A stretch of 64,000 nucleotides of DNA from Actinomycetota bacterium (GTDB lineage: Bacteria > Actinomycetota > Geothermincolia > Geothermincolales > RBG-13-55-18). A program made the position numbers and the translations under genes. Of this stretch, positions 602 to 37,022 are shown in pieces. The stretch is taken from assembly GCA_013178005.1 (NCBI GenBank), contig JABLXL010000010.1, positions 1 to 64,000 of the forward strand, written 5' to 3'. The notes below the pieces were generated by a model that ran no database searches, had not been told where the DNA came from, and was given only the letters and a program-made list of their open reading frames with translations. Every line of letters starts with the position of its first letter. Within the stretch, counting starts at the first letter, position 1.

Positions 602-1875
602 TTTCCCTTTGCTTCCTTTCTCAGCCTCCGCGCCGCCCCGCGCGCGAGCCTCCTCTCTTCGCGGTCCGGACGGAACAGCGCCTGCTGGCGACCCGTCTCC
701 CGTCCCCGGTCCAGGGCCGCGACTATACGGGGTTTTATCCGCGCCGCGTCCAGGGCCTGGTCCACCCTGGTTTTCACCCTCCTGGAAAGTTCCTCGAGCT
801 CCTCCGACACCCCCTCACGACGAGGTATGAGGCGGAGCTGCACCGGCTCCGGGGGCTCCTCCCTGGGGATAAAGGGCAGCTTCTTGTCCTTCAGGGAGCC
901 GGCGGGCACCAGGACCCTCAAAGCCCGTGGGACCACCGAGAGGTTGATAATCCTTCCCGCGTCGAACTTGTAGACCTCGCCGTCGATCTGGGCGTACGTG
1001 TCCGTCTTGCACTCCACGCGCATGCTGCGCACCTGGTGGAAAGAGACGAGCCGCGAGAAGCCATGCCGACCGCCCATGCAGGCGAAACCGAAGAGCACCA
1101 GGCCGTAGACGTTGGGCATCTCGCGACCTATGGTGAGGTCCAGCAAGCCGTCGTTCATGCGCGCGTTGGGGTTAATCCTTATGTAGCGGCCGAAAACCGG
1201 CGCGTTGCACAGGATGGAGATGAGCACCCAGTCCTCGAAGACCTGCCCCTCGTAGTCGAAGCGGACATGGTAGCGCTTGCGCTCCTCGAAAAAACATTTC
1301 TTCAGCCCGCTGTAGAAATAAGCAGGGATGCGGAAGCGCTTCCACTTGTAAGCGCCGTCCGCTATCTCCGAGTCCACTCCCAGGCCCCAGGTGACGGCGG
1401 CGTAACGGTCGTCGTAACGAATGAGGTCGATGGTGCGGCAGGTATCGCCGAGGATCGCCGAGAGCGCCTGCTCCTTGTCCTTGCGGTCATATCCCATGTT
1501 GCACGCGAAGTCGTCGGCGGTACCGGCGGGGAACATGGCCAGTTTCAGATCGGCGGAGGGGACCTTCATGATGCCATTGATGATCTCGTTGGTGGTCCCG
1601 TCTCCCGAGACCGACACCACCACGTCGAAGTCCTCCGCCCATTTCACCACCATCTCCTCGGCGTGTCCCGCGCGCTCGGTGAACAGGGCCTCGTATTCCA
1701 CCCCGGCGCGCTTCAGTCGGTTGAGCAGCCAGATGCCCTCCTCCTGGGCCTTGCCGCCCCTGGAGACGGGGTTCACGATTACCAGGTATCTCCTGTCCCC
1801 TTTGTCCTCCGGCAACGCGACGCCTCCCTTCCGCCACCCTTCACCCAATCCAGCCGGCCGATTCACGCTCGTCAT
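592..1875 (-). CDS. Diacylglycerol kinase family lipid kinase
   Basis: The 427-aa protein belongs to the DAGK/YegS lipid kinase family (DAGK_cat fold), which phosphorylates diacylglycerol or related lipids with ATP at the membrane. The N-terminal NPVSRGGKA segment (residues 35-43) and the nucleotide-binding GDGTTNE motif (91-97) are diagnostic. A second conserved region (TWGLGVDSEIAD, about 165) is typical of bacterial DgkB-like enzymes. The usual length is about 300 residues. Here an extra Arg/Glu-rich tail of about 100 residues follows the C-terminal beta domain and has no recognisable fold. The ATG at 1875 has only a weak Shine-Dalgarno site, so a start nearer residue 30 is possible. The gene is monocistronic, and its stop region is duplicated downstream. 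The lipid substrate cannot be read from the sequence. Confidence 0.9.
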   Translation of the reverse strand: MTSVNRPAGLGEGWRKGGVALPEDKGDRRYLVIVNPVSRGGKAQEEGIWLLNRLKRAGVEYEALFTERAGHAEEMVVKWAEDFDVVVSVSGDGTTNEIINGIMKVPSADLKLAMFPAGTADDFACNMGYDRKDKEQALSAILGDTCRTIDLIRYDDRYAAVTWGLGVDSEIADGAYKWKRFRIPAYFYSGLKKCFFEERKRYHVRFDYEGQVFEDWVLISILCNAPVFGRYIRINPNARMNDGLLDLTIGREMPNVYGLVLFGFACMGGRHGFSRLVSFHQVRSMRVECKTDTYAQIDGEVYKFDAGRIINLSVVPRALRVLVPAGSLKDKKLPFIPREEPPEPVQLRLIPRREGVSEELEELSRRVKTRVDQALDAARIKPRIVAALDRGRETGRQQALFRPDREERRLARGAARRLRKEAKGKAS

Positions 1876-2020
1876 GGAATCACACCGGCGGAAGCTCGAA
1901 AAACCAGGAGATTATGGTATCACGCTGGTTTTATTCAGTAAACAATTAGCGGAGCCTTGTTCAGATCGTTCCGCCGCCGGCGGACGGAAAGGATCGTGCG
2001 AAGTTACCCCGGTTTTCCGG

Positions 2021-2300
2021 GCGCTTTCCGGGTCGGGCAAGGTTTGGCGCGTACCGCCAAATCAGCAAGGCAACCCAGGATGGGGGAAGACTTGGGGGTG
2101 GATCCAGGAAATGGACGCCTTAACAACGTGCCTGGCGCTTTCCGGGCCGGGCAAGGTTTGGCGCGTACAACCAAATCAGCAAGGCAACCCAGGATGGGGG
2201 AAGACTTGGGGGTGGATCCAGGAAATGGACGCCTTAACAATGTGCCTGGCGCTTTCCGGGCCGGGCAAGGTTTGGCGCGTACCGCCAAATCAGCAAGGCG
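2021..2300. repeat. 114-bp tandem repeat, about 2.5 copies
   Basis: Near-identical units start at 2021, 2135 and 2249 (for example GGTTTGGCGCGTAC at 2041, 2155 and 2269). The period is 114 bp, and because it is a multiple of three it keeps false reading frames open on both strands. The unit has no codon-like signal and lies in the 620-bp gap between the lipid kinase and the CBS-domain gene. Confidence 0.92.
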
Positions 2301-2335
2301 AACTAAGCCTTCGGTGAGCGAGGAATTGGGCCGGG

Positions 2336-2435
2336 GAAAGGCTTCGCGTGAACGGGAGCAGGGTTGAGCCTCCCCCAGAACAGACGCGACGGCGGGATAA
2401 TCCAGCCCTCGTGGAAAGCTTCGCGTGACCGGGAG
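2336..2435. repeat. 77-bp-period degenerate repeat
   Basis: GAAAGGCTTCGCGTGAACGG (2336-2355) recurs as GAAAGCTTCGCGTGACCGG (2414-2432), 77 bp apart, just upstream of the CBS-domain gene. Confidence 0.6.
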
Positions 2436-2498
2436 GCCGCCGGTGGGCATAATAGAGCTGAGCGGACGAAAAACGGCGCTTCGCGAGGAGGAGGGACG

Positions 2499-3008
2499 AT
2501 GCTCGTCAAGGAAGCGATGAACCGGAACCCGCCCCGCATCCACGATACCGCGACCATAAAGGAGGCCGCGGAGAGAGTGGCCCTGACCCAGGCCGGCGAG
2601 CTCGTGGTGACGGCGGGCGAGGCGGCGGTGGGCATGGTGGGCGCCGAGGACCTCCTGCGTTGCCTCGTGCCCGAATTCGACGAGCTCCTGGAGGAGGGTG
2701 GCGCCCCCTCGCGGCTGCATCCCCACAGGCGTTCGACGGACCTGCTCCCCCACCTCAAGGTGAGGGAGGTTATGCGCCGGGTCCGCGCATTCCTGGATCC
2801 GGAACAGTCCCTGGAGAGCGCGTTCGGACAGCTCCTGGAAGGAGGAGGAAAAGCTCTTCCTGTGGTAAGCGATGGAAAGCTGGTGGGATGCCTTTCCATG
2901 GTGGACGTGGCCAGGGCGTTGATGTGGCGTGACCGCGTGGCCCCCGCCCAGGGGCAGCCGGCGGTGGAGCGCCGCAAGGGCCGTGGTCGGGAGGAGGGCC
3001 GTCCCTGA
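2499..3008 (+). CDS. Two-CBS-domain protein
   Basis: This 169-aa cytoplasmic protein consists essentially of a CBS pair. CBS1 spans about residues 4-60 (VKEAMNRNPPRIHDTATIKEAA start) and CBS2 about 88-145 (VREVMRRV...PVVSDGKLVGCLSMVDVARAL). A linker of about 25 residues separates them, and a basic Arg/Gly tail ends the protein. CBS pairs bind adenine nucleotides or SAM and act as regulatory modules; no partner enzyme is encoded next to it. The ATG at 2499 was chosen because GAGGAGGAGGG stands 3-9 nt upstream and CBS1 starts right there; the frame is open further upstream but only through repeat DNA. The stop-codon region is duplicated 77 bp downstream. Confidence 0.85.
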   Translation: MLVKEAMNRNPPRIHDTATIKEAAERVALTQAGELVVTAGEAAVGMVGAEDLLRCLVPEFDELLEEGGAPSRLHPHRRSTDLLPHLKVREVMRRVRAFLDPEQSLESAFGQLLEGGGKALPVVSDGKLVGCLSMVDVARALMWRDRVAPAQGQPAVERRKGRGREEGRP

Positions 3009-3100
3009 CCGGGAGGAAATCCTTTCCATGCAGAGATCGAGATCGCCTGCCCTGATTCGGCGGTCGGGAGGAGAGCCGTCTCTTACCGGGAGGTCCAGAT
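2985..3100. repeat. 77-bp-period duplication of a stop-codon region
   Basis: GGTCGGGAGGAGGGCCGTCC at 2985 continues through the CBS gene stop into CCGGGAGG. It recurs with few changes at 3062-3093, 77 bp downstream. The copy is non-coding. Confidence 0.75.
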
Positions 3101-3221
3101 CCCTCCGGGGCATGGGCGCTCGCCCCCTTCGGCCCACGGGCACGGGTGGTCGGAGCGGCGCCGGGAGGGAAGGGCGCGCCCCTTGGAGGGCGGCGCGATA
3201 GCGAAAAAAGGAGTGGTGGCC

Positions 3222-4001
3222 TTGAAGATAGCGGTGACCGGCAAGGGAGGGGTGGGAAAGACCACCCTGGCAGGCGGCCTGGCGCGCCTGCTGGCCGACG
3301 AGGGTTACAACGTCATAGCGGTGGACGCTGACCCCGACGCCAACCTGGCGTCAAGCCTGGGCATCTCCGAGGAGGAGATGGCGGGGGTGGTGCCCATAGC
3401 GGACATGAAGGAGCTCATCGCGGAGCGCACCGGCTCGAAACCCGGCACCTTCGGGACCTACTTCAAGATGAACCCCAAGGTGGACGACCTCCCCGAAGCC
3501 CTGTCTCGGGTCCACAAGGGGGTGCGCCTGCTGGTGATGGGCACGGTGAAGGAGGGCGGCGGCGGCTGCGTGTGCCCGGAATCGGTGATGCTCAAGGCGC
3601 TACTGCAGCACCTCCTGCTGGCCCGCGAAGACGTGGTGATCCTGGACATGGAGGCCGGCCTCGAGCACCTGGGCCGGGGCACCGCGGGAGCGGTGGACGC
3701 CATGATCGTGGTCATCGAGCCGGGGATGCGAAGCGTGCAGACCGCCAACACCATCCGCCGCCTCGCCTCCGACCTCAAGGTCCAGAAGGTGTTCGTGGTG
3801 CTCAACAAGGTCCAGGACGCCCGGGAGGAGGAACTGGTGCGCGCTCGACTTGACGGCCTGCCCTTCCTGGGATCTATTTCCTATAACCAGAGCATACGCC
3901 GTTCAGACCTGGAAGGAACCAGCCCCTACGACGCCGACCCCGACTTCGTGGCCGAGGTGAGGGCCATAAAGGAGAGGCTTTTCCAGGAACTCGGCCGCTA
4001 G
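3222..4001 (+). CDS. cooC: CO dehydrogenase maturation ATPase CooC
   Basis: This MinD/SIMIBI-class ATPase helps insert nickel into the C-cluster of anaerobic CO dehydrogenase. The P-loop GKGGVGKTT starts at residue 7. A Walker B-like VVILDMEAG segment lies around residue 145, and the CooC hallmark Cys-x-Cys (C116, C118 in GGGGCVCPES), which binds metal at the dimer interface, is intact. The family usually starts MKIAVTGKGG. That is obtained with the TTG at 3222, which has AAAGGAG 8 nt upstream; GTG codons at 3213 and 3216 are alternatives. No CO dehydrogenase gene is in the window, but cooT lies 11 kb away. The end of the gene is duplicated 72 bp downstream. Confidence 0.9.
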   Translation: MKIAVTGKGGVGKTTLAGGLARLLADEGYNVIAVDADPDANLASSLGISEEEMAGVVPIADMKELIAERTGSKPGTFGTYFKMNPKVDDLPEALSRVHKGVRLLVMGTVKEGGGGCVCPESVMLKALLQHLLLAREDVVILDMEAGLEHLGRGTAGAVDAMIVVIEPGMRSVQTANTIRRLASDLKVQKVFVVLNKVQDAREEELVRARLDGLPFLGSISYNQSIRRSDLEGTSPYDADPDFVAEVRAIKERLFQELGR

Positions 4002-34109: not shown

Positions 34110-34184
34110 GGGGATGTAGCTCAGTGGGAGAGCGCCTGCCTTGCAAGCAGGAGGTCGGCGGTTCGAATCCGCTCATCTCCACCA
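34110..34184 (+). tRNA. tRNA-Ala (anticodon TGC)
   Basis: A complete cloverleaf is present: acceptor GGGGATG/CATCTCC (one G-T pair), D-arm, anticodon arm CCTGC-CTTGCAA-GCAGG with TGC, GTTCGAATC T-loop, discriminator A and encoded CCA. The 3' half from the anticodon loop is repeated at 36975-37022, marking it as the integration site of the island. Confidence 0.97.
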
Positions 34185-34186
34185 GG
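34139..34186 (+). repeat. Direct repeat attL (48 bp)
   Basis: A 48-bp block covering the tRNA-Ala anticodon loop to CCAGG is identical to 36975-37022. Flanking bases diverge immediately on both sides. Confidence 0.93.
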
Positions 34187-34190
34187 TAAA

Positions 34191-34232
34191 AGGCCTGGTC
34201 AGAGGGCATTTTCCACCTGACCAGGCTTTCCT
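34191..34232 (+). terminator. Terminator supplied by island behind tRNA-Ala
   Basis: The 10-bp perfect stem GCCTGGTCAG/CTGACCAGGC (34193-34202 with 34217-34226) is followed by TTTCCTTTG. It replaces the ancestral tRNA terminator, now at 37029-37069. Confidence 0.8.
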
Positions 34233-34336
34233 TTGTAGAGCGGCTGGCCTTGTATCATATATTGGGGGACCTTCCGATGCCAGAATCGACCCACAACTTC
34301 TTATAAGGAGCTAGAATGACTTTCCCGAGGAAGTTG

Positions 34337-35131
34337 TTAATGCTTTCCGTCAAAGCCCGTAAAGCTCCCGCTGGCAAGTCCCTTCACAACCTCAACCGGC
34401 AACCTGTTATTTACGTTTGCGTTCTCGTTCTCCAAGAAAAGATAAAATATCTGCACTCCTCTTCCGTAGTTGATAGCTTCGATCAAGATGACCCCTCCAA
34501 TTATTCTGTTGTCTTTCTTCGATATAAGCTCTTTCAGCTCTTTTTCCATTGGAGGAAATAACTTCTCCGTCACGCTTACAAATAAATCAGGCACGACAAC
34601 TACGAGGTTGGGTGTGTGTTCCGGAAACTTTTCACGCGCCTTTTCTATTGCATAAAAGATTCTTTCAGTTGGGTTGATAGACCGAGCCTCTCCGCTAACA
34701 TATTTAGGCATCCGCTTTCTTGCCCCTAATTTTTCCGCATCGCTTAACTCGCCCTCCCAACCAGGGTTCTTTACCTCACAATAGATAATGGGTGAGTCTC
34801 TCCATTGAATTTCAAGATCGACATGGTTTTTCGTGTTCGGGTCATAATTAAGAATTGTAAATCCCTTTCGCTTGAAAAAATATGATGCAAGAATCTCGCT
34901 GAACGCGCTATCCCGTTGGCTTATATCGCTGCAAAGCATGCAAGAATAGTGCTCAAATTGCCCTTGAGATTTTATATGAGTCAGCAATCGTTCAATAAAA
35001 TCTGCCCACTCTTGTGAGGATGGAAAATCATCCTGACCCACCCAGGGGGCGTTTGTTAGAATCTTTCTCGTTAAGGGGCCAAGGCATATCTTCACATTCA
35101 TAATAAATTTATTAACATGCGCAGATGACAT
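34337..35131 (-). CDS. Putative PD-(D/E)XK-type nuclease of island operon
   Basis: This 264-aa protein is without a family I can name with certainty. Residues 79-121 fit a PD-(D/E)XK restriction-endonuclease-like core: E79 in a helix (SEILASYFFKRKGF), D105 in HVDLEIQW and E119-x-K121 in IIYCEVKNPGW. Strand, acid, hairpin, E-x-K is the usual order. A further alpha/beta part (NLVVVVPDLFVSVTEKLF, RIIGGVILIEAI) follows. There is no signal or membrane helix. It begins 21 bp after the DUF5131-like stop, so it is the third gene of the operon. No good Shine-Dalgarno site is seen; ATG 35101 is an alternative. AT-rich codon use marks it as acquired. Nuclease activity is predicted, not shown. Confidence 0.65.
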   Translation of the reverse strand: MSSAHVNKFIMNVKICLGPLTRKILTNAPWVGQDDFPSSQEWADFIERLLTHIKSQGQFEHYSCMLCSDISQRDSAFSEILASYFFKRKGFTILNYDPNTKNHVDLEIQWRDSPIIYCEVKNPGWEGELSDAEKLGARKRMPKYVSGEARSINPTERIFYAIEKAREKFPEHTPNLVVVVPDLFVSVTEKLFPPMEKELKELISKKDNRIIGGVILIEAINYGRGVQIFYLFLENENANVNNRLPVEVVKGLASGSFTGFDGKH

Positions 35132-35152
35132 TGAAGAGAAACAGAATGGACG

Positions 35153-35887
35153 TCAACAGTTAGCACTCTCGGCTATTAGGTTTTTAACCGGCATCTGGTC
35201 CCAAATAGTACCGTCCAAGAGACGACCGTTCCTCTTCTTGTTGACTCCTCCCCACTGTTTGAAGAAAAAAGGGACGTTCGCCGCCAAGCATTGGTCGCGT
35301 ATCCTTCTTGCCCAGGCGGGGTCCATCCGTCGAGCTCCAGGGCCTGATTCCCCCCCAACGATAACCCAGTCGATGCCTTCCATGTCGAGGTCACTTATTG
35401 GCCCAAGCAGGGGTTCAAACGACACGAATTTAATGAAGGCGTCTGTTTGTTTGAGATGGTCAATACGATATATATGTTCTTCGGTTTCCACGCTGACCCC
35501 CATCCACACATTGGATGGCCAGGGCAGCTTCGGTGCAAGTTCGCGGAGCCGCCCTGAGCGCTTAGTAAGCACCTGAAAACGGTGATGTGACGCCGCTGTC
35601 ATCACCATAAAGACTTTGGCTATGAACTCCGTGGGAACTTCTTCGTGAAAAAGATCGCTCATGGAGTTGACGAAGATTGCTTGAGGGCGTTTCCAACGTA
35701 GAGGCATCTCAAGCACGTGCTCATGTGTGGTTAGCCTGAAGCCGTTGGTATAGTTGGGGTGACCCATGGCCTTCAGACGTTTAGACATGCGCTCCGCATA
35801 GCAGTGCCGGCAGCCTAGGCTTATTTTCGTGCAGCCGGTAACAGGGTTCCACGTGGATTCCGTCCACTCTATGGCCGATCTCGCCAT
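35153..35887 (-). CDS. DUF5131/phage Gp37-like three-Cys-motif protein
   Basis: The 244-aa protein starts [19 protein letters not shown]. It carries the family's three-cysteine motif C19-x6-C26-x2-C29 ([17 protein letters not shown]), reminiscent of a radical SAM [4Fe-4S] site. Other signatures are [36 protein letters not shown] and [26 protein letters not shown]. The family (Gp37/Gp68 of phages) has no established reaction and regularly occurs beside TcmP proteins. ATG 35887 is one base downstream of the TcmP stop (35889-35891), so the two are translationally coupled. Confidence 0.88.
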
Positions 35888-35888
35888 G

Positions 35889-36722
35889 CTACGCACCTCG
35901 GTTTCTGTATTTTTCGAATATATCCATGACAATCTTTTCTGCAACCGGCTGCTGACTTGCGAAGTACAGATAATATACCACCGAGCCCTTCGTATTGCGC
36001 ATGGGCATGGGGATAGGCACGTGCTGGAATCCCGCTTTCTCTAGAAGTCTTTTCTGAAAGGCCTTCGTAACTGCCTCGTTGCCTAGCTTCGCGTCCTCAT
36101 CGCCGAAGAGGGTTAGTCTTTTCTCGTACGCGATATCGCGCCAAGATCCATCCCCCCAGAAAGCATTCATGCGAGCAATTCCATCTGCTGTCACTCTTTC
36201 GGGATGGCGCCATAGTGCATTCCTGTTCATATCCATGATGGGGAAGTTGAGGAAAAGGTCGATGGTACGAATTCTGCCAGCAGTCTCGATTACCTCCCAG
36301 TTGAGATTCAGCTTGTATGGGTCAAGCAGGCAAAGGCCGCGCCTGTAATCCTCATAGCGCACCCGGGGAAATACCTTCTCGAGAAGAATCTCGTTGCAAT
36401 CCCCCTCAAAGATATGCACATTTTTTCGGTCGCCAACGAGGCTTTTTAGATGTTCGACTTTGCCTCCATCCAAGTCGATAAGATAGAACTCCTTGAATCC
36501 AGGCACAATATTCAAGGCGTTAAGCGGGCTCCCTGGTACAAACTCTCCCGTGCTTCTTGCTATGTTGACCCCTGGCCCAGCGAAGCCGTCTATGTAGACA
36601 TGTGACAGACGCTTCTTCGTAAGGATGGTTGAATACGCTTGCGCGTACTCTCTCACGATGTCGAGTTTGACCTCCGACCAGTATCCGATTTCGTCGAATT
36701 GTACTTCCCCAGCCGCTGTCAA
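35889..36722 (-). CDS. tcmP: Three-Cys-motif partner protein TcmP-like
   Basis: This 277-aa protein is of the TcmP family, named as the partner of three-Cys-motif (DUF5131-like) proteins. It shows a Rossmann methyltransferase-like order: [10 protein letters not shown] (motif I-like), [15 protein letters not shown] (acidic motif II), [11 protein letters not shown] (motif III-like) and [14 protein letters not shown] (DPY, resembling motif IV of amino-methyltransferases). SAM binding is therefore plausible but unproven. It starts with TTG 36722 preceded by a G run at 8 nt. First gene of the island operon. Confidence 0.85.
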
Positions 36723-36974
36723 CCGATCATCCCCCCTAGATCATCTCGTATTTCAATAAACTTCGTATAGCCCCAATCATTATTTACCTGAGGAGTGACA
36801 GAAATCCTTCTAACAGATTTCTAACATAATTGACATAGCTTACCATAAAATACCTGCTGATTCATAAACCCAATCATTTCTGTGAAATGTAAAAAACCTC
36901 TTCAAATACGATATTCCACTCTCATCATCCATATGTTGAAGATGTTAATTCTGTGAACTCCTGATTCCTTGGCA
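36723..36974. other. Island leader region, no gene
   Basis: AT-rich and free of coding frames. It includes an inverted repeat AGAAATC/GATTTCT (36800-36822), a possible operator about 80 bp upstream of the operon. No consensus promoter is evident. Confidence 0.4.
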
Positions 36975-37022
36975 CCTTGCAAGCAGGAGGTCGGCGGTTC
37001 GAATCCGCTCATCTCCACCAGG
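36975..37022 (+). repeat. Direct repeat attR (48 bp, tRNA-Ala 3' fragment)
   Basis: An exact copy of 34139-34186. It lacks the acceptor 5' strand and D-arm, so it is not a functional tRNA. Confidence 0.93.

What the first reader, a model, noticed from the sequence alone, without database searches (positions are those of the whole stretch)
34337..35131. Unnamed nuclease-like third member of the TcmP operon
E79, D105 and E119-x-K121 are arranged as in PD-(D/E)XK nucleases, in a protein I cannot place in a named family. Its gene follows the three-Cys-motif gene by 21 bp. If conserved, this gives the pair an effector that the family descriptions do not mention.
Basis: partly seen in the sequence, partly recalled or inferred. 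Interest (0 to 1): 0.68.

Follow-up and report, generated by a model that had tools for sequence, protein, structure and literature searches.

The report
tRNA-flanked defence island with extra nuclease
A bacterial chromosome carries a 2.8-kb three-gene insert between two copies of the end of a tRNA gene: two genes are a widespread, suspected anti-virus pair, and the third encodes a nuclease-like protein that is an add-on here rather than a fixed member of the pair.

Summary
The ORF, its coordinates, the 21-bp gap and the residues E79, D105 and E119-x-K121 are all real. The nuclease reading holds at sequence level. A two-member profile (this protein plus a SIR2-fused relative from Chloroflexota) aligns with the UPF0102/YraN nuclease-fold family at hhalign probability 96% (100 decoys reached at most 5.5%), with all four residues in register, and its best PDB hit is a UPF0102 structure. 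AlphaFold gives the right alpha-beta order, but model confidence is too low for Foldseek to decide.

The claim that it belongs to the TcmP system fails. The conserved unit is TcmP then DUF5131, already in PADLOC as candidate defence pair PDC-M41. No other TcmP locus or TcmP-bearing genome searched carries the third gene, and its only relative found has no TcmP nearby. Its codon composition also differs from the pair's.

The trio forms a 2.84-kb island between two exact 48-bp copies of the tRNA-Ala 3' end, without an integrase. Three relatives show the uninterrupted site. Elsewhere the pair lies beside other nucleases or defence genes, and once in an integrase-bearing tRNA-Arg island. Most likely the nuclease is accessory anti-invader cargo on a reduced mobile island.

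The parts
34110..34184 (+). tRNA-Ala (TGC), the insertion site; intact copy
   Evidence: ARAGORN, Rfam RF00005 75 bits
34139..34186 (+). left copy of the 48-bp exact direct repeat (3' half of tRNA-Ala from the anticodon loop); attL-like
34187..36974 (.). inserted DNA: low G+C (0.41-0.53 against 0.63), three genes, no integrase; absent at the same tRNA in G002, G010 and G005
34337..35131 (-). P0001, PD-(D/E)XK-like nuclease (E79, D105, E119-x-K121), accessory third gene
35153..35887 (-). P0002, DUF5131 (PF07505), three-Cys protein (C19, C26, C29); PADLOC PDC-M41B
35889..36722 (-). P0003, TcmP (TIGR04474); PADLOC PDC-M41A; TTG start
36723..36966 (.). non-coding stretch upstream of TcmP, 76% identical over 203 bp upstream of TcmP in the congener G001; likely the operon's control region
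36975..37022 (+). right copy of the 48-bp direct repeat; attR-like

Best explanation
The trio is the cargo of a small tRNA-Ala island, probably inserted by a tyrosine recombinase that is now absent from it or acted in trans. TcmP and DUF5131 form the conserved working unit, most likely an anti-invader (defence) module. P0001 is a PD-(D/E)XK-type nuclease acquired separately and placed behind the pair on the same strand, so probably co-transcribed. It most likely adds a second, largely independent anti-invader activity by cutting foreign nucleic acid at an E79/D105/E119/K121 metal site. Shown: the motif, its conservation in one relative, the profile match to a nuclease-fold family, the tRNA repeats and the empty sites. 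Inferred: nuclease activity, its target, co-transcription, the defence role and past mobility.
For: Motif identical in the relative and in register with YraN; best PDB profile hit is UPF0102 3fov; core element order in the model. The relative is fused to a SIR2-like domain, a common defence effector. 48-bp tRNA repeats, low G+C and three empty sites in relatives. Pair matches PDC-M41 and elsewhere neighbours Mrr, HNH, HmaC, HsdR, TIR and a UG21 reverse transcriptase. P0001 absent from all other TcmP loci and different in GC3.
Against: No activity has been shown for P0001, for the pair, or for UPF0102 (one purified member was inactive, PMC10140301). Only one relative is known, and its gene has an in-frame stop. 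Foldseek was inconclusive. The background rate of defence neighbours was not measured. Promoter scans gave no more hits than shuffles, so co-transcription rests on spacing alone.
Confidence: 0.55

Rival explanations
1. Plug-in effector or restriction-like unit: TcmP (methyltransferase-like) and DUF5131 (radical-SAM-like) mark or sense nucleic acid, and P0001 is their cognate cutter, one of several interchangeable nucleases.
For: 21-bp spacing on the same strand. Other pairs have an Mrr nuclease 61 bp upstream (L008), an HNH nuclease 104 bp upstream (L002) or an Mrr-STAND protein 16 bp downstream (L016).
Against: Most pairs have no nuclease neighbour; the slot is upstream in some loci and downstream in others; P0001 has a different composition; its relative has no TcmP nearby.
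Confidence: 0.2
2. Decaying passenger: some or all of the island is no longer functional.
For: The integrase is missing; TcmP departs from two nearly invariant positions, H53N and G137K in the DPYG motif; a congener keeps only a broken DUF5131 fragment.
Against: All three frames are intact; P0001 keeps all motif residues; DUF5131 keeps every column conserved in at least 97% of 51 relatives.
Confidence: 0.15
3. The nuclease serves the island itself, for example in excision, transfer or maintenance.
For: It lies at the tRNA-proximal end; UPF0102 is distantly similar to Holliday-junction resolvases (PMC10140301).
Against: It is missing from the other tRNA-adjacent TcmP loci (L008, L002, L023); its relative is fused to SIR2-like sequence, not to a recombinase.
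Confidence: 0.05

Closest known systems
UPF0102/YraN family (PF02021; solved member 3fov)
   Same: Shares the core helix-strand-strand-strand stretch with the glutamate, aspartate and E-x-K in register
   Different: 264 aa against about 120; no PF02021 hit; the genome has its own separate YraN (G000:C10)
PADLOC candidate defence pair PDC-M41 (TcmP + DUF5131)
   Same: P0003 and P0002 match PDC-M41A and PDC-M41B strongly (2e-74, 4e-119)
   Different: Adds a third, unrelated nuclease gene; P0002 also scores nearly as high with PDC-M30B
CIME (cis-mobilizable element: keeps attL and attR, has lost integration and transfer genes; PMC5704250)
   Same: Direct tRNA repeats at both ends, no integrase or transfer gene among the island's three genes
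   Different: Only 2.8 kb; no evidence of which element it came from or that it moves
L008 island: tRNA-Arg, integrase, Mrr nuclease, TcmP, DUF5131
   Same: Same pair with a nuclease between exact tRNA 3'-end repeats (46 bp)
   Different: Has an integrase; its nuclease is Mrr-type, upstream of the pair; different tRNA and phylum

Membership tests
PD-(D/E)XK nuclease superfamily | Catalytic D and (E/D)-x-K, with a helix glutamate before them, conserved in relatives | tested here: met
   E79, D105, E119, K121 identical in the one relative and aligned with YraN; only one close relative is known
PD-(D/E)XK nuclease superfamily | Alpha-beta core fold | tested here: inconclusive
   Element order fits but mean pLDDT is 57 and Foldseek found no hit at E <= 0.001
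PD-(D/E)XK nuclease superfamily | Metal-dependent nuclease activity | not testable with these tools
   Needs purified protein
UPF0102/YraN (PF02021) | Match to the family model above its cut-off | tested here: not met
   No Pfam hit for P0001 even at E <= 10; similarity is to the fold family only
PDC-M41 (TcmP + DUF5131) | Both component models matched by adjacent genes | tested here: met
   PDC-M41A 2e-74, PDC-M41B 4e-119, adjacent and co-oriented
PDC-M41 (TcmP + DUF5131) | P0001 as a conserved component | tested here: not met
   Absent from all other TcmP loci and TcmP-bearing genomes searched
PDC-M41 (TcmP + DUF5131) | Protection against phage | not testable with these tools
   PDC is a candidate label; no experiment found in the library
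tRNA-inserted island / CIME | Direct att repeats at both ends and an empty site in relatives | tested here: met
   48-bp exact repeat; uninterrupted site in G002, G010, G005
tRNA-inserted island / CIME | No integrase or transfer gene of its own | tested here: met
   The three genes fill the island; none is an integrase; the genome's four recombinases lie elsewhere
Restriction-modification system | A modification that protects from the paired nuclease | not testable with these tools
   No methylome or assay available

The most novel reading that the evidence does not exclude
TcmP-DUF5131 is a core module with an exchangeable nuclease slot (PD-(D/E)XK, HNH, Mrr), and it spreads as minimal integrase-less tRNA islands moved by recombinases in trans.
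Probability: 0.18. Interest if true: 0.75.

Novelty: new variant of a known kind. Interest (0 to 1): 0.42.

Why it matters
It places a candidate defence pair, for which no experimental test was found in the library searched, on a precisely bounded 2.8-kb natural cassette that can be cloned whole, so the roles of the pair and of the nuclease can be separated by single deletions. It also identifies an unnamed PD-(D/E)XK-like group, found once fused to a SIR2-like domain, that the family libraries searched here miss.

Tried and rejected
Conserved third member of the system: rejected. Relatives in plasmids, phages or viral contigs: none. Weak phylum hits L073-L076: L073 is a YraN-type ORF, the rest looked like chance. 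First genome-contig scan with P0001 found nothing. Profile search of 329 genomes from the phylum of a Bacillota MAG: nothing. Fold of the single sequence: pLDDT 36, unusable alone. Foldseek against PDB and viral models: no significant hit, though VRR-NUC and other nucleases recur low in the viral list and FokI in the PDB list. Neighbour gene of the SIR2 fusion as a paralogue of P0001: score 26.1 against a decoy maximum of 28.3, not shown. Shared upstream element across TcmP loci: found only in one congener. RNA elements in the island: only the tRNA. Literature on DUF5131: none in the library.

Full report
What was checked. It starts 21 bp after the stop of a DUF5131 gene (35153-35887), which starts 1 bp after TcmP (35889-36722, TTG start). 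DUF5131 is secure (PF07505, 1e-104), as is TcmP (TIGR04474, 204 bits against a cut-off of 53). Both match the PADLOC candidate defence pair PDC-M41. P0001 itself has no Pfam or PADLOC match, no meaningful PDB match, and only sub-threshold ones in NCBIfam and PHROGs. The sub-threshold NCBIfam hit is PRK14677 over residues 78-122 (E 0.11).

The nuclease reading. Searches of plasmids, phages, IMG/VR and the genome collection found no relative. A search of 370 genomes from the phylum of a Chloroflexi MAG found one: G601:C183, 43% identity over 173 aa, E 6e-43 pairwise. There the domain sits behind a SIR2-like domain (PF13289 at 1.9e-4, just below its own cut-off; PADLOC SIR2 at 3e-10). That gene has one in-frame TAG, so it may be a pseudogene or carry a sequencing error. 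E79, D105, E119, V120 and K121 are all identical.

The profile of the two sequences picks up UPF0102/YraN-type proteins in other genomes, with the glutamate, the aspartate and the E-x-K in register. Against 24 YraN sequences hhalign gives probability 96%, E 4e-9, score 59.4; 100 column-shuffled decoys reached at most 22.7 and 5.5%. These 24 had been selected by the profile itself, which favours the match somewhat. Five sequences, four taken by the Pfam model and one by the profile, gave 88%, E 3e-6. P0001 alone against the 24 gives 91%. The same profile's best hit in the PDB sequences is the UPF0102 structure 3fov, E 0.003. That UPF0102 belongs to the PD-(D/E)XK group is general knowledge, not tested here; its activity is not established, and one purified member showed none (PMC10140301).

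AlphaFold with the two-row alignment gives helix 70-88, strands 91-95, 106-110 and 116-120, helices 131-140 and 154-168, and strand 176-181, with mean pLDDT 57 and pTM 0.61. Foldseek was inconclusive. The nuclease core is therefore supported by sequence profiles and element order, not yet by a structure match. Activity is inferred.

The third-member reading. TcmP followed by DUF5131 is the arrangement in most of 37 close TcmP loci from many phyla. None of their ORFs resembles P0001 at E <= 1. None of the 37 whole genomes holds a clear relative (best hits are a YraN and a chance match). Of 396 genomes of the same phylum, 40 have a TcmP match and only this one has P0001. P0001 also differs in composition: GC3 0.46 against 0.59-0.60 for the pair. 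It is most likely a separate addition.

The island. The 3' half of tRNA-Ala (TGC), 48 bp from the anticodon loop onward, is repeated exactly at 34139-34186 and 36975-37022, bracketing the trio. The interval has G+C 0.41-0.53 in a 0.63 background. In G002, G010 and G005 the same tRNA, with the same left-flank gene, is followed by the right-flank lipoprotein gene without the insert, which is the empty site; in G002 the lipoprotein gene is also duplicated on the other side of the tRNA. G001 has different DNA at this tRNA and a tRNA fragment before its right flank, so the site looks like a hotspot. No integrase lies within the island. The genome has four tyrosine recombinases elsewhere, two of them beside other tRNAs, so supply in trans is possible but not shown. 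An att-flanked element without integration genes fits the published definition of a CIME (PMC5704250).

The pair in the same kind of setting elsewhere. L008 (Vicinamibacterales) shows a fuller version: tRNA-Arg, integrase (PF00589), an Mrr-type nuclease, TcmP and DUF5131, bracketed by an exact 46-bp tRNA-Arg repeat. L002 and L023 have the pair's 3' end facing a tRNA. L003 has an integrase just upstream. Of 33 loci with both genes, 7 have a defence gene within 350 bp on the same strand: HNH (L002), Mrr (L008), Mrr-nSTAND3 (L016), TIR (L021), HmaC (L023), HsdR (L032) and a UG21 reverse transcriptase (L034); an eighth, a HATPase (L036), is weaker. No background rate was measured. In the literature, TcmP SMa2243 of Sinorhizobium meliloti is listed in one regulated group with the Hna defence helicase (PMC12445080), and TcmP occurs in S. 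meliloti prophages (PMC12429752).

Conclusion. The best reading is a reduced tRNA island carrying a candidate defence pair plus an accessory PD-(D/E)XK-like nuclease. The plug-in effector reading is not excluded, but nothing here requires it: most pairs have no such neighbour. TcmP here departs from two nearly invariant positions (H53N, G137K), so loss of function is also possible.

Noticed in passing
window 34139-34186 and 36975-37022: Exact 48-bp direct repeat of the tRNA-Ala 3' half around the three genes; became central to the explanation.
   Followed up: yes
window 35889-36722 (TcmP residues 53 and 137): TcmP departs from two columns that are at least 97% conserved in 37 relatives: H53N and G137K, the latter in the DPYG motif. 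Could mean altered or lost function.
   Followed up: partly
L072:1-563 (G001:C150): The congener G001 carries a TcmP start and about 200 bp of conserved upstream DNA at another site, beside lexA; the similarity stops close to where the window's right repeat begins. The contig ends inside TcmP.
   Followed up: partly
L136:4390-4435 and L135:3347-3451 (G001): G001 seems to have a different insert at the same tRNA-Ala, with a tRNA 3' fragment before the right flank: a likely insertion hotspot.
   Followed up: partly
L008:2002-7801: tRNA-Arg island with integrase, Mrr-type nuclease, TcmP and DUF5131 between exact 46-bp repeats.
   Followed up: partly
L079:469-2253 / L111:6531-8315 (G601): Relative of P0001 fused behind a SIR2-like domain, with one in-frame TAG.
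   Followed up: partly
L111:5490-6503: Gene just before the SIR2 fusion also has an E...D...E-V-K pattern, but its profile score does not exceed shuffled decoys.
   Followed up: partly
L144/L145 (G002:C17:84459-84865): A broken DUF5131 remnant with stop codons in a same-genus genome.
   Followed up: no
L137 (G002:C5), around 1524-3337: The lipoprotein gene of the right flank is present twice in G002, once on each side of the tRNA-Ala.
   Followed up: no
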